In this document: positions 1 through 22,902 of the stretch, one piece after another | Position numbering within the stretch: position 1 is the first letter of the stretch | Layout of the letters: every line of letters begins with the position of its first letter | From: Candidatus Peribacteraceae bacterium | GTDB lineage: Bacteria; Patescibacteriota; Gracilibacteria; Peribacterales; Peribacteraceae | DNA length: 45,958 nucleotides | Assembly: GCA_028699155.1 (NCBI GenBank) | Contig: JAQVVD010000010.1 | Coordinates: forward strand, 1 to 45,958 | Direction: 5' to 3' | Made by a program: the position numbers and the translations under genes | Notes under the pieces: generated by a model | Databases searched by the model: none | Seen by the model: only the letters and a program-made list of their open reading frames with translations | What the model was told of the DNA's origin: nothing

Positions 1-1497
1 CTGCACTTGTTCCAGCATGGCAGCCTGCCGTGCATTCTCCGCCTCCATCTCTTCCAAATCTTTGCGGGCATGTCCTCCTTGTTCTTTGTACGCCTTGTGT
101 CCTACAAACGCACCGGAAAGCCCTGAACTCGTGTCTCCAAAAATATGTTGGCGTGCCCGTGCAAGGTACGCAGAACTCTGAGCATTATCATCCATCTGCC
201 ACGCGCCCATTGCTCCATCCATGAGCACTCTGGCAACGTCCACTCTCTGTTGCTCATTCTTCAGCCACGCTTCTTCATCTTTGCGCCGCAACATGGGATT
301 CGTGATGCTGGCAGGAGCGATCTGCATCGCTGCATCCGCTTTCAGCAGCAGCACCTCTGTGCGCGTGCAGAATGATCCCGCATCCTCCTCCAGGCGTTGC
401 AGCGCCTCCTGCAGCAGATCCACTCTGCCGCACTGCGCGGCAAGCTCCGCAGCGCCCAGTGCCATCCCCGCACGCACCGCCCCATCGCCTTCGGAACGCA
501 GGGTATCCATGATCTTCTTACATCCCTGCTCATTCTTCTGCGTAACAGCGGCGAGCGTCTTCGCAGCGACCTGATGGAGCCGTTCCAGTTGCGCACCCGT
601 CTCTGCATGTTCCGCTGCAGCTCCTGCAGCGGGATCTTCTACGACGGGAGCCGGGACAGAAGGGATGGACACCATCTCTTCTGCGCGGGGTTCTGGATCA
701 CTAGGCACCGCCGGAAGCTCCGGGAGAACAGGAAGGCTGGCCACTTCCTCTGGCTTCGGCTCCTGCTCAGCCTCGTGTGGACTCTCGGCGGGAACCGCCT
801 GCTGCGTCTCTGCGTCTCTGTTCCCCCGCAGAGGAGGCACGCCGCGCACCGCATCCACTTCTTTCTGGGAGAGGTGTCTTGCAGCTGCAGGCTTCCTCTC
901 CTCCTCCGGCCCTCCAACCCTGCTGCGCACCCATCCGACCACGCCGCCAATCGCCACAGTGGCTCCCAGCACGCCGGCAATGGTCCAGCTGTGTGCTTTG
1001 CTGCGCACGGCGTTGCGCTGCTGGGCGATAGGGGAGATCGGAGGAACCTCCGGTCCTACGGCAAGAGCGAAAGGGGGAGGGGGAGCAACGTGCGGTGCTC
1101 TGGCAGGAGAGCCATGCCCTTCCTCGCTATCCTTCTGCTGCTTGCGACGACGCAGCAGTGACTGCACCTGCTTGTCATACCGCGCCTTCTTCGTGGGATT
1201 GAGGAGAATAACGCGCGCATTGGAGAGTTCGTTGAGAAGTTTCGAGACGGTGGCAGGATGCTTAATCTGTCGCTCCCGTATGGCTCCCATACGCATGTTT
1301 GCCGCATTCTCAATCACGTTCGGATTCTGCTCAAAGAGCGGAATACTCAGCAGCGTGTAGTAGTCAAGCGGGCGAGGCACATCCGGAGAGATGCCCAGCC
1401 ATTCGTAGTATGGGTCGAATGCACGCACCGCATGTTCTGGCGAGACGTGCAGAGAATCGCTTGGGAATGCCCCGTGGTGAGGAACACCAATAGACAT
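1..1497 (-). CDS. J-like/transmembrane surface protein, paralogue 1 (3' end outside window)
   Basis: The frame stays open from an ATG at 1497 to the window edge (499 codons). Residues about 25-110 form a J-like domain common at the N-terminus of planctomycete proteins: a WLGI motif, then YYTLL, then a LLNELSNARVILLNP-type stretch ending KKARYDK. A Pro-rich linker follows, then one transmembrane helix (around WTIAGVLGATVAIGG), then a long Glu/Ala/Gln-rich helical ectodomain. I infer a single-pass protein with the J-like domain inside the cell. From the linker onward it is nearly the same as the protein at 11291-13756, while the J-like domains differ clearly. The function is unknown. A sigma70-like promoter lies just upstream, and I see no clear ribosome binding site. 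Confidence 0.8.
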   Translation of the reverse strand, partial: MSIGVPHHGAFPSDSLHVSPEHAVRAFDPYYEWLGISPDVPRPLDYYTLLSIPLFEQNPNVIENAANMRMGAIRERQIKHPATVSKLLNELSNARVILLNPTKKARYDKQVQSLLRRRKQQKDSEEGHGSPARAPHVAPPPPFALAVGPEVPPISPIAQQRNAVRSKAHSWTIAGVLGATVAIGGVVGWVRSRVGGPEEERKPAAARHLSQKEVDAVRGVPPLRGNRDAETQQAVPAESPHEAEQEPKPEEVASLPVLPELPAVPSDPEPRAEEMVSIPSVPAPVVEDPAAGAAAEHAETGAQLERLHQVAAKTLAAVTQKNEQGCKKIMDTLRSEGDGAVRAGMALGAAELAAQCGRVDLLQEALQRLEEDAGSFCTRTEVLLLKADAAMQIAPASITNPMLRRKDEEAWLKNEQQRVDVARVLMDGAMGAWQMDDNAQSSAYLARARQHIFGDTSSGLSGAFVGHKAYKEQGGHARKDLEEMEAENARQAAMLEQVQ

Positions 1498-2775: not shown

Positions 2776-5700
2776 ATGGATCACAGAAACAGGAGGCTCA
2801 GCATGGAGCCGCTGGAGGACCGGTGCATGCTCTCTGCAGGCGCAGAGTTCGATGCGATTGTTCCCGTGCCGGAAGACATAGCGGCGCTGCAGGGCCGGCA
2901 GATTGCCGCCATAGAGGCGACGCTGGATGCGCAGTTCCAGCCTGCACAAATTTCCCCACTGCTCTCACAGAACTTCGAAGGCGGCGATACCGCGTTCAAC
3001 GGATCGCGCGCCATCGATCTGGGGTACGTCCCCGAGTACAACCTGCAGGATTTCACAATACACGCCAAGGCGCTCTACACAGAAAAAGGAGTAGAGCAGG
3101 TGATCGTGGGGCTCAATACCCAGGCGAACCGCTCCTACGGCTACAGCGGCGTGACCCTCAATTTCAGTAGGGAAGGCGGCATGCTCAAGATCTGGTACGC
3201 GGCTCCCGATACCAATCACGAGGTATTCACGCACTTCACGCCGGAAATCGGGCGGGAGTACGACATCGTCGTTGCCAAGCAGGGAAAGCAGCTGCAGCTC
3301 TTCGTCGATGGCGAACACAGAGAGGATCTCACATGTCCGGCAGCTGAGATCATGTACAACGCCACGGGGCGCACCATGGTGAGCGGTCTCTGGTCCGGGG
3401 ACAAAGGGAGTGCCATCTACCAGCTCAATGGAGAAATTTCAGAGCTCAGAGTGTACGGCGCAGCGTACGCGCCGGCGGAGCTGCAACAGGAAGTCTGGAA
3501 AACGACAGTTGAGGATGCTCCTTTGGCGGAGGAGAGCACTGCTGCCACTATCGCGCAGGAGGCGCAGCCCGCATGCATTCCCCCTCTTCTCTCACAGACA
3601 TTCGAAGGCAGTAATTCGGCGTTCAACGGATCGCGCGCCGTAGATCTGGGGTATGTTCCGGAATACAACCTGCAGGATTTCACAATTCGCACGACCGTGG
3701 TTGCCGGAGGATCGGCGGCAGAGCAGGTGATCGTGGGGCTCAACACGCAGGCGAACCGTTCCTACGGCTACAGCGGCGTGACCCTCAATTTCAGTAGGGA
3801 AGGCGGCATGCTCAAGATCTGGTACGCGGCTCCTGATACCAATCACGAGGTCTTCACGCACTTCACGCCAGAGATCGGGCGCGCGTACGACATCACCCTT
3901 TCCAAGCAGGGGAAGCAGCTGCGGCTCTTCGTCGATGGCGAACACAGAGAGGATCTCACATGTCCGGCAGCTGAGATCATGTACAACGCCACGGGGCGCA
4001 CCATGGTGAGCGGTCTCTGGTCCGGGGATAAAGGGAGTGCCATCTACCAGCTCAACGGAGAAATTTCAGAGCTCAAAATGTACGGCGCAGCGTACGCGCC
4101 GGCGGAGCTGGATGTGCAGAAGGATAGTCGGCAGGAAGCCGTTGGCGTTCCCACTGGGTCGGCGGACGCTGCACCTATGGCAGCGCAGGGTGAATTGCAG
4201 CAGGCGGAGGCAGCGCCTTCGTACGCTCCTCGTATGCTGCTCACGGTATCGGGAGGCGGTTTCGACGCGCGTTTCCGGTCACCATACGATGTCACCTGTT
4301 TCCAGGTATTCGCGGTCCGCAATAAGGCGACTGGCGATAAGTGGTGTATCGGAGAGGAAACGGTATCCCATCCGGGCGGGCAACCTGATGGAGGGTGGGG
4401 ATGGAGTTCTGACTGGGCGCTCCTGCGGAATCCGGAGATCAAAGATATCGAAGTGGTCATGTGGTGCGGAGCGAAGGGGGACAAGGTTGCTGACCGTGCC
4501 GTTGGTTCCATTTCCTACGGGAAGCTCTCGCTGCACACGCCGCAGAGTGCATGGGAAGATATTCTTGCAGAGCAGCGCATTGAGTCGGCTGTGCAGCCCG
4601 AGCTCAACGTACTCAAGATCGAAGGGCCCAATGTGCTCGTGCACATCGCATCGCCGGCGAACCAGAGCACCGTGAATATCGGCGGCAACGGGCTGCTCGC
4701 CACGCGCACGCAGCTGCACGAGGGCGGAACCGCCTCCGCAATTTTGCAGGTGACGATGAATGCCGGCAACCCGCGCGGCGCCTACGCAATTCAGCTCATG
4801 AATGTGCCCAATGGGCTTGTCCTGGATTCCGTTCCCGTGTACTGGGACGGCTCTTCCCTCTCGCTTCTCCATGCGGAGGACGGCATGGAGGGGATGCCGG
4901 TCGAGTGGGATATTCCGCAGGAGTACTGCATGAGCAGCGCACTCGTGCGCAGCAATATGGAATCCGATCTTGCCGCGAGGAGCGGTCTCCTCATCAGCCC
5001 GGCGGCCGCGGAGGCTTCCTTCTACGAGCGGCACCCGGAGTACCGGCCGGAGAACCTGCAGGCGACTATCAATGCGGAGCACGCGCGCCTGCCGAGCTTC
5101 ACCCGCAGCCAGACGGCTGACCGCGTGCTCGGCGACATGTATGACCTCCTCACGCGCATGCACCGGGGCCTGGATGCCCTGAACAGCGCGATACAGAACA
5201 TTGTTCTCCCGGCAGCCATGAACGTCTTCCGCGGGGTCTTGAGCGGCGTACCGGAGAGCCAGCTCCACGCGCAGCTCGATGCGGCAATGCGCTGCCTCGT
5301 GGGCGGACGCATCACGGATCTGTACCTGCATACGAAGATCGCCGCACCCTCGCGCAGCGCGATTCTCGCGGCTGCGCAACAGGTCTTCTTCGAAGAGACG
5401 GATCTGATGGAGTACTACCGCGCGCAGGACCAGAAGCTCCTCGCCAAGGGCGTCGCGCCGCAAACGGAAGATCCCTTCATCACCGCCGCCCGGCAGCGCG
5501 GCGAGCTGTGGGCGCAGTACATGGGGCAGATTTCCGCAGGGCAGATGACCGCCGCACAGGCGCTCACGGCGCTGGCGGCGGATGTTTCCTCCACATCGGT
5601 TGCACAGGCGCAGCAGCAGGCGGTGGATCAGGTGATGGCACTCGTCGCAGAAGATCCCGCGCTCCTCGCCAATGCGGATGACCTGCTGACGCTGGCGGAG

Positions 5701-6504
5701 GTGGAAGTGGGGGGAGTGGAGACAGGGGATGCCGTTCTCACCGTTTCGCAGGCACAGATTCCGCTCGGCGGGACCGTGGAGGTCAATTGGGGATTCAGCC
5801 GGATCTACGGCGCAGATGTGGCGAGAGTGAGCCTGTACCTCGTTGATCGTTCCGCGAGCGGCTCTGCGCAGGAGATCATGGTACTGGAGGACCAGTGCCT
5901 GAGTGACGGCAGCTACGCGTTCGATACGTCCAAACGCATCTCGCAGGCGGGGGAGTACCGCATCCTCGCGGTTGCGACCCTCGCGAACGGGCGGCTGGTG
6001 GGAGGGCAGGCGGAGGTGAGGGTGGGGGTCGGGGAGAACAACGAGGTAATAGTTCCTGAGACGTGGGACGAGGTCACAAATCGTCGCATACAGGAATTGC
6101 ATCCTGCTATTAGAGAGATGACTCTTACATTCATTAATCGCGTTGAAGAAGAGCTAAATATTCGATTAAGAATCACACAAAACCCCTATCGTTCCTTTGG
6201 AGAACAGAATGCTTTATACGCGGCGGGGATCAGTCCGGTCAGAGGCGGAGAAAGTTATCACAATTATGGACTAGCCATTGATTTAGTGGAGATTGAAGCG
6301 AACGGCGCAGCAAATTTCCAAACAAACTGGGATGCTATTGCTCGTATTGGTAAAGATATTGGTTTTAACTGGTCGGGAGACTGGGATAATCCTTATGAGA
6401 AAGGACACTTCGATGTGAATTTCGACTTAAGGACGGATCAGCTGTTGCAGTTGTATAAAGAGAGGCAAGAGGGGCAAGAGTACGTTTCCCTTCCCACAGA
6501 ATAG
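2776..6504 (+). CDS. LEPR-type modular surface protein with two LamG-like modules and a C-terminal M15 murein peptidase
   Basis: Predicted exported protein of 1242 residues. The N-terminus (RRLSMEPLEDRCMLSA) matches the planctomycete LEPR export signature; the ATG at 2776 puts it near the start, though 2746 is possible. Residues about 62-235 and 271-444 are two nearly identical LamG/concanavalin-like modules. A short beta module follows (about 480-590), then a helical region, then an Ig-like linker (about 990-1085). The C-terminus (about 1095-1242) matches M15-family L-Ala-D-Glu/D-Ala peptidases: a HP..R start, SYHNYGLAIDLV with H1162 and D1169, and GHF with H1211. It is expected to cut peptidoglycan peptides. 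Base composition falls sharply after 6028, at the linker/peptidase border. A 219-bp copy of the linker sits at 8314-8532 before an M23 peptidase. The next gene starts 3 bp after the stop. Confidence 0.85.
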   Translation: MDHRNRRLSMEPLEDRCMLSAGAEFDAIVPVPEDIAALQGRQIAAIEATLDAQFQPAQISPLLSQNFEGGDTAFNGSRAIDLGYVPEYNLQDFTIHAKALYTEKGVEQVIVGLNTQANRSYGYSGVTLNFSREGGMLKIWYAAPDTNHEVFTHFTPEIGREYDIVVAKQGKQLQLFVDGEHREDLTCPAAEIMYNATGRTMVSGLWSGDKGSAIYQLNGEISELRVYGAAYAPAELQQEVWKTTVEDAPLAEESTAATIAQEAQPACIPPLLSQTFEGSNSAFNGSRAVDLGYVPEYNLQDFTIRTTVVAGGSAAEQVIVGLNTQANRSYGYSGVTLNFSREGGMLKIWYAAPDTNHEVFTHFTPEIGRAYDITLSKQGKQLRLFVDGEHREDLTCPAAEIMYNATGRTMVSGLWSGDKGSAIYQLNGEISELKMYGAAYAPAELDVQKDSRQEAVGVPTGSADAAPMAAQGELQQAEAAPSYAPRMLLTVSGGGFDARFRSPYDVTCFQVFAVRNKATGDKWCIGEETVSHPGGQPDGGWGWSSDWALLRNPEIKDIEVVMWCGAKGDKVADRAVGSISYGKLSLHTPQSAWEDILAEQRIESAVQPELNVLKIEGPNVLVHIASPANQSTVNIGGNGLLATRTQLHEGGTASAILQVTMNAGNPRGAYAIQLMNVPNGLVLDSVPVYWDGSSLSLLHAEDGMEGMPVEWDIPQEYCMSSALVRSNMESDLAARSGLLISPAAAEASFYERHPEYRPENLQATINAEHARLPSFTRSQTADRVLGDMYDLLTRMHRGLDALNSAIQNIVLPAAMNVFRGVLSGVPESQLHAQLDAAMRCLVGGRITDLYLHTKIAAPSRSAILAAAQQVFFEETDLMEYYRAQDQKLLAKGVAPQTEDPFITAARQRGELWAQYMGQISAGQMTAAQALTALAADVSSTSVAQAQQQAVDQVMALVAEDPALLANADDLLTLAEVEVGGVETGDAVLTVSQAQIPLGGTVEVNWGFSRIYGADVARVSLYLVDRSASGSAQEIMVLEDQCLSDGSYAFDTSKRISQAGEYRILAVATLANGRLVGGQAEVRVGVGENNEVIVPETWDEVTNRRIQELHPAIREMTLTFINRVEEELNIRLRITQNPYRSFGEQNALYAAGISPVRGGESYHNYGLAIDLVEIEANGAANFQTNWDAIARIGKDIGFNWSGDWDNPYEKGHFDVNFDLRTDQLLQLYKERQEGQEYVSLPTE
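2959..4107 (+). repeat. 627-bp-period tandem duplication of a LamG-like module
   Basis: Bases 2959-3480 and 3586-4107 align at a constant offset of 627. Long stretches are nearly identical (for example 3301-3470 against 3928-4097). They encode the two LamG-like modules of the LEPR protein and point to a recent duplication or gene conversion. Confidence 0.9.
5810..6028 (+). repeat. Ig-like linker repeat, copy 1 (in frame inside the LEPR protein)
   Basis: A 219-bp segment that recurs at 8314-8532 with about five mismatches and no gap. Sequence on both sides of the pair is unrelated. It encodes the last Ig-like strands before the peptidase tip. Confidence 0.93.
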
Positions 6505-7530: not shown

Positions 7531-8334
7531 ATGAAAAGCTTCTATTGTATTTGTATCGGCTTTGCTCTGACTGGTTGCACCCTTAGTCAATCGGATGTTT
7601 CTTCAAATACATTTTACGAAAAATCTGCACAATCTACGTATTCATCTTCGAGTTCAGCAAAAAATGAATTGACGCAAGTAGATGTCATAACCGAGTCGTC
7701 CGATGGAATGCAATGGCTTTCCTATTTCAACTCTGACCATGGTATTGCTTTTGATTATCCAGCAACTACTTGGGGTTACGGGACCACAGAACCTAAAACC
7801 TATGTGCGAGAAATAAGCGTTCAATCTTTCAATGCCCAGGAAAAAATTCGATGGAATGTTGCAGATGTCTCTCCAGATCACATGTCCGTCATTGTATTAG
7901 GAATTCAGAATTCTAATCCCCAACCCGAATTTATTTTCTACACAGATACTGTCGACGATGAATATAAGATTACCGATCTCGTTCGTAGACGGTTTGGCAC
8001 AAGTTGTCGAATCCAAAGTCAACCAATGGATGATGATCTTGTAAACATACAAGTTCGTTTAGGTGACGGAGAGGACATCATGAATACGCAATGTAAGTTT
8101 CCTAATGTTGCTGATACACTTTTGTATAGTAAATCCAGAAAAAAAATGGTGAGCCTTTTTATGGGTCAAGAAGTGCGTTTCCCGAGCAAGGATAGAAGCG
8201 ACCAACTCAATCATCGCGTGGGACACGATGGTCTGATTAAAAGAAGTCTACGATTCGTTGACTATGATAGTGCTACAGGTGAGTGGAGAATAACTCGTCT
8301 GTTTCCACTTAAAGCGCAGATGTGGCGAGAGTGA
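7531..8334 (+). CDS. lipoprotein of unknown function, 3' end overwritten by the linker repeat
   Basis: About 267 residues. The signal ends in the lipobox ALTGC, followed by a Ser-rich spacer. The domain after it starts YFNSDHGIAFDYP, a pattern seen in secreted PsbP/YP-type domains. The base content is AT-rich. Its last codons and stop (from 8314) lie inside the displaced 219-bp linker copy, so the native C-terminus was probably lost when that copy arrived. A weak promoter (TTGGTC, 16 bases, TATATA) precedes it. I do not recognise a function; as a neighbour of murein hydrolase cassettes it may be another protective partner. Confidence 0.72.
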   Translation: MKSFYCICIGFALTGCTLSQSDVSSNTFYEKSAQSTYSSSSSAKNELTQVDVITESSDGMQWLSYFNSDHGIAFDYPATTWGYGTTEPKTYVREISVQSFNAQEKIRWNVADVSPDHMSVIVLGIQNSNPQPEFIFYTDTVDDEYKITDLVRRRFGTSCRIQSQPMDDDLVNIQVRLGDGEDIMNTQCKFPNVADTLLYSKSRKKMVSLFMGQEVRFPSKDRSDQLNHRVGHDGLIKRSLRFVDYDSATGEWRITRLFPLKAQMWRE

Positions 8335-8532
8335 GCCTGTACCTCGTTGATCGCTCCGCGAGCGGCTCTGCGCAGGAGATCATGGTCCTGGATGACCAGT
8401 GCCTGAGTGACGGCAGCTACGCGTTCGATACGTCCAAACGCATCTCGCAGGCGGGGGAGTACCGCATCCTCGCGGTTGCGACACTCGCAAACGGGCGGCT
8501 GGTGGGAGGGCAGGCGGAGGTGAGGGTGGGGG
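8314..8532 (+). repeat. Ig-like linker repeat, copy 2 (orphan)
   Basis: Copy of 5810-6028 at an offset of 2504 with about five mismatches. A stop codon (TAA at 8310-8312) lies immediately before it in the linker frame, so it has lost its scaffold. It joins directly to the M23 peptidase tip. Confidence 0.93.
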
Positions 8533-11290: not shown

Positions 11291-13756
11291 CTAGGGGAGA
11301 GCCTTAATTGATATTTTCCCAGGGACTCTTCCCGTTGAAGATAGTGGTGATACCGAAATTCTTTCAATTTGGACAGACTGATGCCAAAGACCGATGCGAA
11401 GATTCCCATGCACGTTTTCATCTGACCACTTACCTTCTGAAACAGCATCAACAGTCAATAGTTTTGGATCACCAGATATGGTTGCCTGGTTTCTCGTTAG
11501 GACAGGTTTTCCGTTTAATTTGACCGTAATTCTTACCACGTCGCTGGCAAATTGTTCCACAATAATTTCTGCCTCAGTTACTTTCTCATGCATGGACCTG
11601 TCATAAGAGATTTTCACCGGTTCTGCGTTTTTGTCCTGAGACCGTATAAAAAACCATAATTCATTATGAGTAATTGACATTTTGGCATCTTGCCCGTTAA
11701 TAGGGAAGAAAATAATAAGTTCGCCATGTTTCGTTTCCCCCCGCTCTTCCCACTGTATATGAGAAAGGCTTATTCCCGACAAGGTCACAGAATAGCTTCC
11801 GCTCGGGAAGACATTACTAGAGATCATTGGTCTTGGGTATTTTTCAATATTGCCCGAGGGCAGTGTTGCCTGAATTCTTCCATCTCTCAATTCGACATAA
11901 TTCGTTCGAGTTCTTTGGAATAAGTTAGTTATATTTTGTATCCTGCTAGAATTCTCTGCAGATCCCCCCACCCCCTCCCTCTCCAACCCATCCACCACCA
12001 GCTTCTCCGGTCCCGTGAGCGACATGCTCCTCAGCATCCCCATCTGCACAGATGCAGCCTGCTCCGCCACCCTGCGCATACGCTCATTCTCCCCGGCGAC
12101 GCGTAACCACGCCCGCACAACCGCCACCCGCTCCTCTGCCGTGTCTCCGCCCTGCAGCGTGAGTTTCGCAGCTTCTGCCATGGCGCGATCCGTTCCCTGC
12201 GCTACGTGCGGCAAACCCCGCTCCCAATCTCCCCGTGCAAGGAGCAGGTACTCCCCCAGACTCTGGTGTTCAGAGGCATTCTGCGGAGAAACCCCGCCTT
12301 CCAGCAGAGCCTGCACTTGTTCCAGCATGGCAGCCTGCCGTGCATTCTCCGCTTCCATCTCTTCCAGATCGTGACGGGCATGCTCTCCTTGTTCCTTGTA
12401 CGCCTTGTGCCCCACGAATGCACCGGCAAGCCCAGAACCCGTGTCTCCGAAGATGTGCGTGCGCGCCCGTGCAAGGTACGCAGAACTCTGAGCATTATCA
12501 TCCATCTTCCACGCGCCCGTCGCACCGTCCATGAGCACTGCGGCAACCTCCACTCTCTGTTGCTCGCTCTGCAGCCACGCCTCTTCATCCCTGCGCCGCA
12601 ACATCGGATTCGTGATACTGGCAGGAGCAATCTGCATGGCTGCATCCGCCTTCAGCCGCAGCACCTCTGTGTGCGTGCAGAATGATCCGGCATCCTGCTC
12701 CAGGCGTTGCAGTGCTTCCTGCAGCAGATCCACTCTGCCACACTGTGCGGCAAGCTCCGCAGCGCCCAGCGCCATCCCCGCACGCACCACCCCATCACCT
12801 TCGGAGCGCAGGGCATCCATGATCTTCTCACATCCCTGTTCATTCTTCTGCGTAACAGCAGCGAGCGTCTTCGCAGCGACCTGACGCATCCGTTCCAGTT
12901 GCGCACCCGTCTCTACATGTTCCAGTGTAGCTCCTGCAGCGGGATCTTCTACGACGGGAGGAATAGTCGGGATCGAAGGAATGGATACCATCTCTTCTGC
13001 GCGGGGTTCTGGATCCCTGGGCAGCGCCGGAAGCTCCGGGAGAACAGGAAGGTTGGTTACCTGCTCCTGCTCAGCCTCGTGCGGATTCTCGATGGGAACT
13101 GCCTGCTGTGGCGCTGCGCCTCTGTTTCCCCGCAGAGGAGGTACGCCACGCACCGCATCCACTTCCGTCTGAGAGAGGTGCTTGGCAGCTGCGGGAACCC
13201 TCTCTTCCTCCGGACCTCCCACCCTGCTGCGGACCCATCCGACCACGCCGCCAATCGCCACAGTGGCTCCCAGTACGCCGGCAATGGTCCAGTTGTGCGC
13301 TTTGCTGCGCACGGCGTTGCGCTGCTGCGTGACAGGGGAGATCGCGGGAACCTCCGGCCCCACAGTGAGAACGGGGGGTGCGGGAGGGGGAGACTCCTGT
13401 CGCTGGATTTTCGTTCGCAATTGCGTGTCGTACACGGCTCTCTTTCCTGCATCGAGCAGACATACCCGTGCGGAGGAAATTTCATTGAGGATGCGCTGAG
13501 ACAGACCGCTATGCCTGCCGACCTGCAACGTCCGCACATGCGCCATCCGTTGATCGGCGGCGTGTGAAATCACATCGACATCGGACTCGAACTGGGAGAT
13601 ACCCAGCAGGCGGTAATGATTGGGCGGCTGTTCCTGCGGAGGAATGCCCAGCCATTTGTGATATGCATCAAACTGCGCACCTGTATGCTCAGGGGAGGCG
13701 GACAGAGGCTTCCTGCCGGGAACATCGCTGCGGTCGCGCGAAAATTTCTCCTCCAT
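11291..13756 (-). CDS. J-like/transmembrane surface protein, paralogue 2 (complete)
   Basis: About 821 residues from the ATG at 13756; a second ATG at 13780 would add eight. The J-like domain (about 27-115) has YHKWLGIPPQEQPPNHYRLLG, a LNEISSARVCLLD segment and KRAVYD, a very planctomycete-like signature. A Pro-rich linker and one transmembrane helix (about residues 155-175) follow. The long helical ectodomain reaches about residue 600. The last 210 residues are beta-rich, perhaps concanavalin-like, and their DNA (11291-11940) is clearly more AT-rich. Linker to ectodomain is nearly identical to paralogue 1 at 1-1497, but the J-like domains diverge. This mosaic suggests exchange of both ends around a conserved middle. 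Function unknown. Confidence 0.82.
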   Translation of the reverse strand: MEEKFSRDRSDVPGRKPLSASPEHTGAQFDAYHKWLGIPPQEQPPNHYRLLGISQFESDVDVISHAADQRMAHVRTLQVGRHSGLSQRILNEISSARVCLLDAGKRAVYDTQLRTKIQRQESPPPAPPVLTVGPEVPAISPVTQQRNAVRSKAHNWTIAGVLGATVAIGGVVGWVRSRVGGPEEERVPAAAKHLSQTEVDAVRGVPPLRGNRGAAPQQAVPIENPHEAEQEQVTNLPVLPELPALPRDPEPRAEEMVSIPSIPTIPPVVEDPAAGATLEHVETGAQLERMRQVAAKTLAAVTQKNEQGCEKIMDALRSEGDGVVRAGMALGAAELAAQCGRVDLLQEALQRLEQDAGSFCTHTEVLRLKADAAMQIAPASITNPMLRRRDEEAWLQSEQQRVEVAAVLMDGATGAWKMDDNAQSSAYLARARTHIFGDTGSGLAGAFVGHKAYKEQGEHARHDLEEMEAENARQAAMLEQVQALLEGGVSPQNASEHQSLGEYLLLARGDWERGLPHVAQGTDRAMAEAAKLTLQGGDTAEERVAVVRAWLRVAGENERMRRVAEQAASVQMGMLRSMSLTGPEKLVVDGLEREGVGGSAENSSRIQNITNLFQRTRTNYVELRDGRIQATLPSGNIEKYPRPMISSNVFPSGSYSVTLSGISLSHIQWEERGETKHGELIIFFPINGQDAKMSITHNELWFFIRSQDKNAEPVKISYDRSMHEKVTEAEIIVEQFASDVVRITVKLNGKPVLTRNQATISGDPKLLTVDAVSEGKWSDENVHGNLRIGLWHQSVQIERISVSPLSSTGRVPGKISIKALP

Positions 13757-19033: not shown

Positions 19034-19073
19034 CGTAAAATCGCTCGCAGCGAAGCGAGAGCTATTTTACGTG
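19032..19073 (+). terminator. stem-loop directly after tRNA-Leu
   Basis: Ten-bp stem CACGTAAAAT/ATTTTACGTG with a GC-rich inner stem (GCTCGC with GCGAG). It starts within the encoded CCA. There is no following T-tract, so it is either a non-canonical terminator or a processing structure. Confidence 0.5.
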
Positions 19074-19119
19074 GGACGTGGCGCCGCCGTGGCGGACTTT
19101 ACGTCCCTGCGAGCGATCA

Positions 19120-19344
19120 CGTGGCGCCGCCGGTTCTCCCTTCGTTCAATCGAGTACACCATTCGTCGCCCCGCATAGCGGGGCTCCTCATGGTGAGCCA
19201 TGAAAGTTTCTCCTGAACGCATGTGAAGGATTCAAGCTTGCCCTGAGCAACGCGAAAGATCTTTCCCCGGTCACCAGGCATCCGTATGCTTGCGGAATAG
19301 AAATACTATGACGAAGTAGTCGAATGTATATCGAAATAATGGCT
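19120..19344. repeat. 225-bp direct repeat, left copy
   Basis: Matches 22429-22653 without gaps at an offset of 3309, with about five mismatches. It contains hairpins GCCCCGC/GCGGGGC (19168-19184) and TCATGG/CCATGA (19188-19203), and ends at the stem ATGGCT...AGCCAT. It includes a segment (around 19230-19260) of the CTTCGCGTTGCTCAGGGC kind, a type of short repeat I associate with many genomes. Confidence 0.92.
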
Positions 19345-19403
19345 GATTTAAGCCATATATAAAGTATTTACAAATAAAAATATTATATTATAATAGCAAT
19401 CTT

Positions 19404-22400
19404 ATGTTTCGAGAAACATCTGAGATTTCTCTGGGTATAAAAGACAGTGATGCGCTGATCGCAAGTAAACAAGCGCCAGTAGATAACACTGTTGGTGATG
19501 TAGGAATTGTTGAGTATATTTCAGGAGAAAGAATTGGTGCAATACAATCCACATTAGAACGATCAAGTCCTACGTGTGATCAGACTGAAATGGATACAGC
19601 ATACTTTTGTAATGCAGACACAGTTCGAAAAGACTTAGAAGCATTTGCACAATCGATGGGTCTAGATTCAGTTGATCAATTAAGTATGCATCGCATTGAG
19701 TATTCGGCTGTACTTTGCAATGGAGAGACATGTAACTGGCAAAGATATCTGAATACTGCTGCACGTGCTTTAGGGGTACAAAAAAAAACACCCGAAGGCT
19801 CGTATCGACTCAAGCCTGTTTTGATCATGCTCAAGAAAATCGCTCAGTTGGATGTGCAAGAGTTTCCTGTAATGGATAACACATATTTTAATGATAAAGA
19901 AAAGGTATCATCCGATCTACTGCAATTTACAATTGCCTTAGGTGAGCAAAGTCCCGACGACCTCACTGCATCTAAGGGGAACATTGGAGCCCTCTGCAGT
20001 AATGGAGAGACAGTTAAGTGGACAACGTACTTACGCAGAGCTTCGAGTGCGCTCGGATTAATTCAGCGGAACGGGAAGGGAAAATACAGGGGGAACTTAC
20101 AAAAGGCACTGGAGCATCTAAAAAGAAGCATAGGCCTAGAAATCACAGTCCACAGCCCCATGAATATCCAGTACTTTGAGAATACACAGACACTTCAGTT
20201 AGATCTCTCTGCTTATGCCATCGCAGCTGGCGTAGAAGGCATTGTAGATCTGAATTCAGGTAAGGCATTCCAAGCACATGCTACATGCTGTAATGGCGAG
20301 ACATTGCAGCTTTCCAGATATGTTATTCGCGCTGGTCGCATACTAGGATTGGCAGATTCGTACGATGATGCTCGTACAAAGTTCAGGGAGATTTTGGATC
20401 ATCTCAAACGAAGTGCAGGTGTCAAAATTATTCAAGCAATGGCAAATCGTCATCTCCATGACCCAAGTGCCATGGTTGTGTATTCTCCGATGGATACTGC
20501 ATATTTCTCAAATATACCCCAGTTTCGTACAGATCTTCTCGCTTTTGCATTTGCTATGGGTTGCAAAAGTATTGCCGAGCTATCTGGGAGCAGCAGAGTA
20601 TCTCAAACGACAGCATTTTGTGTGAATGGTGAAGAGGTTAGCTGGGAAGCGTATTTACACCGTGCATCAAGAGCACTTGATATACCAAAGAGAGGTAGAT
20701 TAGTTGCAATAAAAAAGTTTGTGTGTATTGAAGTCCCAGAAGAACCAGATGAGAATTACTTTGCAGATAAAAGGCATATTCTTGCAGATTTAGATTCATT
20801 TGCGGCTGCGATGCAATTGCCAAGTACTGCGCAGCTAAATACGCGGTATCATGATACAGAAGCAGTATGCGAGAACGGGGAAATAATGAAGTGGAATACG
20901 TACCTTCGCCGTGCTGCTAAAGCCCTTGGTTATATCGAAAATCCTGGAGATTCCTGGAGCAAAAGAGAGATAGTAGATGTCTTATTGAGAACATGTGATG
21001 TGGACGTAGTGAGATATCCACCCATGGAGAGATCCTATTTTGAAAATTCATCATGTATCTCTGCAGATCTTATTGCTTTTGCAACTGCAATGGGGCTTGA
21101 TGATCCAGGCTTTATAAGTACATCCAGAGCTGGTGTAACAGCTACTTGCTGCACAGGCGAGAGTGTCAAATGGCAAGCATACATGCATCGAGCCGCAAGA
21201 GGGCTGGGGTTTGCTGTAACCGACGCAGAAAGTCGGCAAGGTATAGCGCAAGTTGTAGCGCAGCTCAAAATCATTGCGGGTATAGCCGCGCCAGAACCAT
21301 CAACCTATGCACAAGCCGTCATTCCAGAAATATTTACCTCTCCTAGGACAAAACAGCCAGGCAAGAGAGGGCGCGAACAACGCAATAGAAAGTCTACAAG
21401 GATCAAATATGAGACATTACAATCCATGAATACAACCTTTTTGAAAGGTGAAGCATTCGAGCAAATGGTAGGAGTAGCACTAGGATTACAAAATTCTGAT
21501 GAGCTCGTTATTCCTCAGTACTGCCTGTATGTAGAAGCTGAAAAAGGAATCTTTGCGGTACGTGCGGATTTTAAAGTTGGAGAAACCATTTACGAAGTAA
21601 AATGGGGGAATGCCGAAGATAATATCGATGAAACGAGAATGAGGCACATGCAGTATATCGACCAAGGAATGCGGTATCAGATAGTGCGTTTGCAAAATCC
21701 AAATGGGGCTTCTGGCGATCAAATCCTTTTTTCTTCATCTTTCGATGATACACAGAAAACTGAAGAGGTAGGGGATATGTTGTGCACTCTTCCTTTGGAA
21801 ATACAGACGATTCTTGCAGAGATAACGCTTGAAATCATGGCCGCAGCAGAAAGCAGCGATGCCGATCTGTTACTTTGTATCCGAAATCATTTATATGCAT
21901 ATTCTGAGGAAGCAAATGATTTGAAGGGCAAATATAGAATTGATTTCTTCCAGCAAAAACTGTCCGAATTGCTGAGGCAGATAGTAAATGAGGACGAGCG
22001 AGGAAACCTCCTTAGTTCTATTCCAAAACACAGATACAGCACACTTCTTGCACACTTTGAACATGATGGGCAGTTATACCGCGGGTACATAAGCCCTGCA
22101 GATCTGCAATCTGAGCAAGCAGAGCGCTACCAGACATTGTATTATTTTGACGGTCTTCCGTTTGTTTCAAGGCTTGATAGAGATATTGCTGTGATGATCG
22201 AATGTTCCGATGTTGGAGACAACGTTAGAAAATTGATTAGAGGTGACGATTTTGTGAACCATCCGATTTTCGAATGCACTGATGGCACAAGAATCACGTC
22301 GCACGAAGATCCCAATGCAGTCCAAGTGCAGAATATTTCTGAGCTCAAGAATACAATTCCATTCTCTGGCGATATGTTTGAATTTGGAGAACAGTATATT

Positions 22401-22418
22401 GCCTTAGAAGATAGCTAA
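19404..22418 (+). CDS. six-repeat modular protein with PD-(D/E)xK-like nuclease core
   Basis: 1004 residues, AT-rich. Six repeats of about 86-110 residues start at residues 63, 157, 253, 363, 449 and 541. Their consensus is MDxxYF, DLxAFAxAMG, then CxNGExVxWxxYLRRAxRALG. The W..YL.RA..LG end of each resembles the helix-turn-helix repeats that accompany homing endonucleases. A basic linker (about residues 650-672, GKRGREQRNRKSTR) precedes a core with E683/E686, D722 and E731-V-K733, the spacing of PD-(D/E)xK nucleases. About 250 C-terminal residues are not recognised. I infer a DNA-binding nuclease, either selfish or defensive. It is alone between two 225-bp direct repeats beside tRNA-Leu. No second gene of a known defence system is present. 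Confidence 0.8.
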   Translation: MFRETSEISLGIKDSDALIASKQAPVDNTVGDVGIVEYISGERIGAIQSTLERSSPTCDQTEMDTAYFCNADTVRKDLEAFAQSMGLDSVDQLSMHRIEYSAVLCNGETCNWQRYLNTAARALGVQKKTPEGSYRLKPVLIMLKKIAQLDVQEFPVMDNTYFNDKEKVSSDLLQFTIALGEQSPDDLTASKGNIGALCSNGETVKWTTYLRRASSALGLIQRNGKGKYRGNLQKALEHLKRSIGLEITVHSPMNIQYFENTQTLQLDLSAYAIAAGVEGIVDLNSGKAFQAHATCCNGETLQLSRYVIRAGRILGLADSYDDARTKFREILDHLKRSAGVKIIQAMANRHLHDPSAMVVYSPMDTAYFSNIPQFRTDLLAFAFAMGCKSIAELSGSSRVSQTTAFCVNGEEVSWEAYLHRASRALDIPKRGRLVAIKKFVCIEVPEEPDENYFADKRHILADLDSFAAAMQLPSTAQLNTRYHDTEAVCENGEIMKWNTYLRRAAKALGYIENPGDSWSKREIVDVLLRTCDVDVVRYPPMERSYFENSSCISADLIAFATAMGLDDPGFISTSRAGVTATCCTGESVKWQAYMHRAARGLGFAVTDAESRQGIAQVVAQLKIIAGIAAPEPSTYAQAVIPEIFTSPRTKQPGKRGREQRNRKSTRIKYETLQSMNTTFLKGEAFEQMVGVALGLQNSDELVIPQYCLYVEAEKGIFAVRADFKVGETIYEVKWGNAEDNIDETRMRHMQYIDQGMRYQIVRLQNPNGASGDQILFSSSFDDTQKTEEVGDMLCTLPLEIQTILAEITLEIMAAAESSDADLLLCIRNHLYAYSEEANDLKGKYRIDFFQQKLSELLRQIVNEDERGNLLSSIPKHRYSTLLAHFEHDGQLYRGYISPADLQSEQAERYQTLYYFDGLPFVSRLDRDIAVMIECSDVGDNVRKLIRGDDFVNHPIFECTDGTRITSHEDPNAVQVQNISELKNTIPFSGDMFEFGEQYIALEDS

Positions 22419-22428
22419 ATAATCACGC

Positions 22429-22653
22429 CGTGGCGCCGCCGGTTCTCCCTTCGTTCAATCGAGTACACCATTCGTCGCCCCGCATAGCGGGGCTCCTCAT
22501 GGTGAGCCATGAAAGTTTCTCCTGCAAGCATGTGAAGGATTCAAGCTTGCCCTGAGCAACGCGAAGGATCTTTCCCCGGTCACCAGGCATCCGTATACTT
22601 GCGGAATAGAAATACCATGACGAAGTAGTCGAATGTATATCGAAATAATGGCT
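22429..22653. repeat. 225-bp direct repeat, right copy
   Basis: Partner of 19120-19344. It begins 10 bp after the stop of the 1004-residue gene. Its terminal hairpin (ATGGCTTTATGAAGCCAT) differs from the left copy only in the loop region, so the stem is conserved. Confidence 0.92.
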
Positions 22654-22902
22654 TTATGAAGCCATTTTAATATCGACTTGCGCGGCAGTCTCCTCTGTAG
22701 CGTGATGCCTTGCGCCGCGCAGGATGGTTCACTATTCTGCACCGGTTCTATGAATAAGATTCACTTCTTCCTCATCCCGCTGTTCGCGCTGGTGTTCCTC
22801 ATTCTGTGAGGAGCAGGTTCTCGGCGGGTGTGACGCGCCATCAGGGTGCGTTTTTTCATGCCCGTCGTGCGCTGGCGAGACAGTCGGGTCAGCGACCGTT
22901 TC
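22654..22902. other. intergenic stretch with a tiny hydrophobic frame
   Basis: A stem TGCGCGGC/GCCGCGCA lies around 22679-22722. The frame at 22750-22809 (+) would encode a 19-residue hydrophobic peptide, MNKIHFFLIPLFALVFLIL. It could be a small membrane peptide, but I see no ribosome binding site. Nothing else is recognised here. Confidence 0.3.

What the first reader, a model, noticed from the sequence alone, without database searches (positions are those of the whole stretch)
19404..22418. Six-module repeat protein with nuclease core: possible programmable or homing-type nuclease
Six about 95-residue modules each end in a W..YL.RA..LG helix pair, and differ in between. They precede a basic linker and an E...D-x8-ExK core (E683/E686, D722, E731, K733). 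Repeated DNA-reading modules before a PD-(D/E)xK nuclease recall modular nucleases and homing-endonuclease repeats, but I know no family with this exact repeat. Alone on an AT-rich island, it may be a selfish element or a single-gene defence.
Basis: partly seen in the sequence, partly recalled or inferred. Interest (0 to 1): 0.8.

Follow-up and report, generated by a model that had tools for sequence, protein, structure and literature searches.

The report
New tandem-module nuclease in Gracilibacteria
An AT-rich, apparently imported gene in a small uncultured bacterium encodes six copies of an undescribed ~86-residue building block joined to a probable DNA-cutting domain; the same block, in one to eight copies, occurs in other proteins of this bacterial class, several of them DNA motor proteins, so it looks like a previously unnamed DNA-binding module, although binding and cutting have not been tested.

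Summary
The repeat is real. The 1004-aa protein (19404-22418, +) holds six copies of an ~86-aa module; a profile built only from other genomes finds all six (E 6e-14 to 1e-20; 0 of 200 shuffles). Pfam, NCBIfam, PHROGs and PADLOC do not know it. AlphaFold2 gives a confident fold (pLDDT 91: helices, beta-hairpin, helix, helix) without a Foldseek match; it is not a recognisable helix-turn-helix. The module occurs in 20 of 353 genomes of the class and was not found outside it in a phylum sample. In relatives it is fused to SF2 (RadD/HsdR-like) helicases and to SNF2 ATPase plus methyltransferase, which argues for DNA binding. The C-terminal core keeps E686, D722 and E731-x-K733 in two module-free homologues, as in PD-(D/E)xK nucleases; fold prediction there failed. 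The gene is AT-rich (43% vs 57%) and flanked by 237-bp direct repeats. A module gene in another family has the same arrangement (end of cysE duplicated), but so does an unrelated insertion in this window, so I read the repeats as a scar of horizontal acquisition. Best reading: a site-directed nuclease; restriction/defence favoured over homing. Programmability is untested.

The parts
19404..22418 (+). Module-nuclease gene, 1004 aa
   Evidence: ORF list; AT-rich 42.8% vs 57.4% flanks; only copy in its genome
19593..19850 (+). Module 1 (residues 64-149)
   Evidence: held-out profile E 1.1e-20
19875..20138 (+). Module 2 (residues 158-245)
   Evidence: held-out profile E 1.5e-20
20169..20423 (+). 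Module 3 (residues 256-340), lacks the W
   Evidence: held-out profile E 9.1e-17
20493..20699 (+). Module 4 (residues 364-432), last helix missing or degenerate
   Evidence: held-out profile E 6.3e-14
20748..21002 (+). Module 5 (residues 449-533)
   Evidence: held-out profile E 1.2e-18
21030..21284 (+). Module 6 (residues 543-627)
   Evidence: held-out profile E 7.6e-16
21336..21413 (+). Basic linker (residues 645-670, TSPRTKQPGKRGREQRNRKSTRIKYE)
   Evidence: read from the translation
21438..21698 (+). PD-(D/E)xK-like core (residues 679-765): E686, D722, E731-x-K733
   Evidence: these residues invariant in two module-free homologues of G317; fold not confirmed
21771..22415 (+). C-terminal region (residues 790-1004), conserved with the core in a module-free homologue
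   Evidence: alignment with L048:5815-7245
19120..19356 (+). Left copy of 237-bp direct repeat
22429..22665 (+). Right copy of 237-bp direct repeat (96% identical), 10 bp after the stop codon
18944..19033 (+). tRNA-Leu(gag) upstream of the island; purB-tRNA-Leu order recurs in many relatives

Best explanation
A horizontally acquired, single-gene, site-directed DNA nuclease. The six modules form a DNA-binding array (inferred), the basic linker holds DNA non-specifically (inferred), and the C-terminal E-D-ExK core cuts DNA with a metal ion (inferred from conserved catalytic residues). Each module would touch DNA through residues in the loop before the beta-hairpin (module positions 33-39) and at the start of the helix after it (49-55), which vary from copy to copy between invariant framework residues. 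The likeliest role is restriction of foreign DNA, by analogy with the same module on HsdR/RadD-like SF2 helicases and on an SNF2 ATPase plus methyltransferase protein. The gene was brought in by a recombination event that left about 240 bp of the target in two copies. Shown: modules, their spread, the fusions, conserved catalytic residues, AT-rich island, direct repeats. Inferred: DNA binding, cutting, target choice, biological role.
For: Modules and profile statistics. Fusion to DNA-acting ATPases: ResIII/Helicase_C with at least 3 modules in G089 and 5 in G121, 5 in G289; modules + SNF2 + Methyltransf_11 in G239, SNF2 in G256. Catalytic residues invariant in three nucleases. Confident, repeated module fold. 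Column entropy within single proteins peaks at module positions 33, 36-38, 51, 55, 65 and 74, next to near-invariant Y53, L54, A57, C42, N44, G45. In near-identical modules of G089 the loop 33-41 differs at pN 0.36 while framework 42-48 differs at 0.013; pN/pS is about 1.1 in that loop in G089 and L025 against 0.3-0.8 for helix 1. Island traits.
Against: No binding or cleavage data. AF2 of the nuclease part failed for lack of homologues (pLDDT 33). The nuclease fusion was found in this one genome only; most module proteins have no recognised enzyme domain and many carry an unknown NMMRK...TFVI domain instead. No partner methyltransferase that would protect the host was recognised beside the gene. 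No PADLOC match. pN/pS is about 1 at most in the variable loop, so relaxed constraint explains it as well as diversifying selection.
Confidence: 0.5

Rival explanations
1. Selfish homing-type element. The nuclease cuts an empty allele at the target, and repair from the element-bearing copy inserts the gene together with a replacement of the adjacent target stretch, leaving the old stretch behind as a duplicate, as WHO elements do at yeast FBA1.
For: 237-bp repeats (96%) abut the gene. In a different family (G239, code 25) a module gene is flanked by a 142-bp repeat whose right copy is the headless 3' end of the upstream cysE-like gene; most differences between the copies are at third codon positions (6 of 10). 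The WHO model predicts such remnants (PMC7282813, PMC7282806).
Against: The G239 protein has an SNF2 ATPase and methyltransferase, no recognised nuclease. Only 2 of 17 tested loci show the repeats. An unrelated AT-rich insertion in the same window (between 5810-6028 and 8314-8532, 219 bp, 97.7%) shows the same arrangement. No allele pair was available.
Confidence: 0.15
2. Recombination or repair protein of the chromosome, RadD/HsdR-like, in which the modules hold branched or single-stranded DNA without sequence preference.
For: Helicase relatives score best with RadD and HsdR-type models in NCBIfam; module genes sit alone among housekeeping genes.
Against: Patchy distribution (20 of 353 genomes) and an AT-rich imported island do not suit a core repair function; module copies diverge at fixed positions.
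Confidence: 0.15
3. The module binds protein, peptide or another ligand, not DNA; the array is a scaffold or recognises phage or partner proteins.
For: No known DNA-binding fold matched; many module proteins lack any DNA-acting domain.
Against: All five recognised helicase/ATPase fusions and the nuclease fusion are with DNA-acting enzymes; two further module proteins carry HTH-like regions.
Confidence: 0.2

Closest known systems
TALE and TALE-like proteins (TALE, BurrH, MOrTL, STAR)
   Same: Tandem modules with a constant framework and a few variable positions; can sit beside an effector domain
   Different: Unit about 86 aa with a beta-hairpin instead of about 33-35 aa all-helical; no Pfam match; DNA reading not shown. 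The systematic screen of DNA-binding tandem repeat proteins covered unit lengths 15-35 only (PMC11417379), so it could not have seen this module
Helicase-associated (HA) domains and homing-endonuclease-associated repeats (HNH_repeat, NUMOD/IENR1)
   Same: Small tandem DNA-binding units attached to helicases or nucleases (from general knowledge); the motif NGE.v.f.tYl.rAa.aLG recalls the F.S...Aa..lG phrase of NUMOD1 by eye only
   Different: No profile match for any of 24 modules in Pfam at E up to 5
PD-(D/E)xK nucleases
   Same: E...D...ExK order and spacing with conserved E686, D722, E731, K733, and G735 after them
   Different: No known family matched in Pfam, NCBIfam, PHROGs, PADLOC or PDB sequences
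WHO homing elements of yeast (Coughlan et al. 2020)
   Same: Free-standing gene with duplicated target sequence at both sides
   Different: Different nuclease type; here the duplicated stretch is intergenic; the same scar also surrounds an unrelated insertion
Type I / type III restriction helicases (HsdR, Res) and RadD
   Same: The helicase relatives of the module family carry ResIII + Helicase_C domains
   Different: Scores far below NCBIfam equivalog cut-offs; no HsdM/HsdS partners looked for systematically; the window protein has no helicase

Membership tests
PD-(D/E)xK nuclease superfamily | Conserved E/D...D...(D/E)xK catalytic residues | tested here: met
   E686, D722, E731, K733 invariant across window, L048 and L144 proteins
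PD-(D/E)xK nuclease superfamily | alpha-beta-beta-beta-alpha-beta core fold | tested here: inconclusive
   single-sequence AF2 pLDDT 33
PD-(D/E)xK nuclease superfamily | Significant profile match to a known member family | tested here: not met
   no match in Pfam, NCBIfam, PHROGs, PADLOC, PDB sequences
TALE-like repeat proteins | 33-35-aa two-helix repeat with repeat-variable diresidue | tested here: not met
   86-aa alpha/beta module, no Pfam match
Homing-endonuclease-associated repeats (HNH_repeat, NUMOD, IENR1) | Sequence profile match | tested here: not met
   24 modules scanned, E up to 5
Helicase-associated (HA) domain | Sequence profile match | tested here: not met
WHO-type homing element | Target stretch duplicated on both sides of a free-standing gene | tested here: met
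   237-bp repeats in the window, 142-bp in G239; but also at an unrelated insertion
WHO-type homing element | Encoded nuclease cuts the empty target allele | not testable with these tools
   needs a cleavage assay
WHO-type homing element | Repeated insertion of relatives at the same target | tested here: not met
   module genes lie among different neighbours in each genome examined
Restriction or defence system | Match to a known defence protein model | tested here: not met
   window protein has no PADLOC hit; a helicase relative hits restriction-enzyme models in its helicase part only
Restriction or defence system | Protects against phage or foreign DNA | not testable with these tools
   needs phage and plasmid assays

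The most novel reading that the evidence does not exclude
The ~86-residue module is a new fold of sequence-reading DNA-binding unit, confined to the class Gracilibacteria, in which each copy reads a short stretch through the variable loop and helix start; arrays of one to eight or more units are plugged onto nucleases, SF2 and SNF2 motors as interchangeable targeting parts, making natural, possibly reprogrammable site-directed nucleases.
Probability: 0.2. Interest if true: 0.9.

Novelty: new variant of a known kind. Interest (0 to 1): 0.6.

Why it matters
If the modules read DNA sequence they would be another naturally modular DNA-targeting scaffold beside zinc fingers and TALEs, already found joined to a nuclease and to DNA motors, in a poorly understood branch of bacteria. 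Even without sequence reading, it is a lineage-specific tandem module family absent from the libraries searched, which gives a handle and a partner list to many unannotated large proteins of Gracilibacteria and Peribacteria.

Tried and rejected
Phage records and viral contigs with the protein, the module pattern and the nuclease: no relatives, so no support for a phage origin. PDB sequence searches for module and nuclease: only chance hits. Foldseek of the module pair against PDB and viral models: nothing below E 0.26. Single-sequence AF2 of residues 660-1004 failed. Nuclease hit in G031 rejected: weak, with a stop inside, no matching ORF. I considered that the direct repeats prove homing and rejected it as unproven, because an unrelated 2.3-kb AT-rich insertion in the same window has the same scar. 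Strong diversifying selection on modules was considered: a crude count looked extreme, but proper site counting gives pN/pS near 1 in the variable loop, so the claim was reduced to relaxed or diversified positions. Which copy of the cysE end in G239 is native could not be decided: no close enough relative.

Full report
Observation. The 1004-aa ORF at 19404-22418 (+) contains six copies of one module. An iterative profile started from the six copies found more than 50 further copies in homologous proteins. To avoid circularity I built a profile from other genomes only: it finds all six window copies (i-E 1.1e-20 to 6.3e-14) and nothing in 200 shuffled versions of the protein. The consensus is DEEYFEDPEKVRADLEAFAKAAGGKSVEDLSTSNISTEAICQNGESVKFETYLKRAAVALGLAKNSKEAKSKKAEVLKELKKIAGI. 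Module 3 lacks the W and module 4 is cut short.

Known or not. No library knows the module: Pfam, PHROGs, NCBIfam, PADLOC, PDB sequences. AF2 on a two-module fragment, with an alignment of window modules and modules from four named-genome loci, gave pLDDT 91: short helix, long helix, beta-hairpin around the near-invariant C.NGE turn, helix, helix. Foldseek found nothing similar in the PDB (best E 0.77) or in viral models (best E 0.26). This is therefore not a recognised helix-turn-helix; pTM 0.68 leaves the mutual arrangement of the two modules less certain.

Distribution. In 353 genomes of the class, 20 carry the module. In an even sample of 380 genomes of the phylum only five hits occurred, all within that class. 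The named relatives are Candidatus Peribacteria TH-11nov19-141 and Candidatus Gracilibacteria bin_em_oilr2.006, and several hits read TGA as a sense codon, as expected for some Gracilibacteria. The published screen of DNA-binding tandem repeat proteins looked at units of 15-35 residues only (PMC11417379), so this module was out of its range.

Architectures. SF2 helicase (ResIII + Helicase_C, closest to RadD and HsdR-type models but far under their cut-offs) followed by modules: G089, G121, G289. In G089 one contig ends inside such a gene and another begins inside a module array with near-identical units, so they are probably one protein split by assembly (inference). Modules + SNF2 ATPase + methyltransferase: G239; SNF2 with HTH-like regions and two modules: G256. 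Modules without a recognised partner, up to eight: G121, G352, G161. Modules behind a shared ~110-aa domain, NMMRKxSY...P.L.r.ilVCDE.gn.TFVi: seven proteins. One divergent N-terminal module with a long low-complexity tail in the window's own family: G068, G051, G010, G017. Modules + nuclease core: the window alone. The recognised fusions are all with DNA-acting enzymes, which is the main argument for DNA binding.

Nuclease. The C-terminal part has relatives only in G317, in two proteins without modules. All three share G..FE, R.DF.V, YE.K.G, that is E686, D722, E731 and K733. This order and spacing fit PD-(D/E)xK, but the fold itself was not confirmed: with no usable homologues AF2 gave pLDDT 33. 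The residues after the core (790-1004) are partly conserved with it in L048, of unknown role.

Variable positions. Within single proteins, column entropy is high at module positions 33, 36-38, 51, 55, 65, 68, 74 and 80 and close to zero at 4-5, 14, 45, 53 and 81. Positions 51 and 55 lie one turn apart on the helix that follows the hairpin. Among the near-identical modules of G089, loop 33-41 differs at pN 0.36 whereas the neighbouring framework 42-48 is nearly unchanged (0.013); pN/pS in the loop is 1.08 in G089 and 1.16 in L025 against 0.79 and 0.36 for helix 1. This suits specificity-determining positions, but relaxed constraint would look the same.

Island. The gene has 42.8% G+C in 57% surroundings. 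It lies behind purB and tRNA-Leu(gag), an order found in many family members, and what follows the tRNA differs from genome to genome; in G022 the SLH/Calx-beta gene that follows here is preceded by two unrelated ORFs. A 237-bp direct repeat (96%) begins 284 bp before the start codon and again 11 bp after the stop codon. It includes short interspersed sequences that recur in family genomes, but in this genome the whole repeat exists only here. In G239 the module-SNF2 gene is flanked by a 142-bp repeat (93%), the right copy being the headless end of the upstream cysE-like gene; six of ten differences are at third positions. WHO elements of yeast leave such duplicates (PMC7282813, PMC7282806). 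However, a control scan of 454 kb shows another case in this same window: a 219-bp repeat (97.7%) at 5810-6028 and 8314-8532 around a 41% G+C segment with unrelated genes, where four of five codon differences are silent and joining the flanks gives one intact reading frame. The duplicated edges therefore look like a general way in which foreign DNA enters this lineage, for example single-crossover integration through a short stretch of homology (inference), rather than the mark of this nuclease.

How it most likely works. Array binds DNA, core cuts. Restriction or defence is favoured over homing because the module's partners are restriction-type motors and because module genes sit among different neighbours in each genome, but neither role is shown. 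I put 0.5 on a DNA-targeted nuclease acting on foreign DNA, 0.15 on homing, 0.15 on a repair-type role and 0.2 on a non-DNA ligand for the module.

Noticed in passing
window 5810-6028 and 8314-8532: 219-bp direct repeat (97.7%) enclosing a 41% G+C segment with two lipoprotein-like genes and a new M15-peptidase end of a 1252-aa surface protein; joining the flanks gives one intact frame of 1291 codons.
   Followed up: partly
window 19034-19131: 98-bp element behind tRNA-Leu that recurs, in some genomes several times, across many genera of the family; it starts with an inverted repeat (CCACGTAAAATCGCTC/GAGCTATTTTACGTGG).
   Followed up: partly
L027, L028, L031, L032, L033, L035, L084: Shared ~110-aa domain with NMMRKxSY...VCDE.gN.TFVI signature in front of the modules in seven proteins; no Pfam match in those scanned.
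   Followed up: partly
L028:7075-9408 (-): A second, different tandem repeat (W..M....R..F...G..L..IA..FGL...YL.LGKKIYG) upstream of two modules in one protein.
   Followed up: no
L087:5371-7443 (+): Another tandem repeat (kF..adFpPfGKG.AFa.aILGk.v..v....L..IAd.L) with HTH_26 similarity following one module.
   Followed up: no
window 2938-4110: 546-bp tandem duplication (89%) inside the 1252-aa surface protein, two Laminin_G_3-type domains.
   Followed up: no
window 1-1085 and 12311-13392: Two ~1.09-kb stretches 87% identical, one inside an 829-aa minus-strand ORF and one at the window edge.
   Followed up: no
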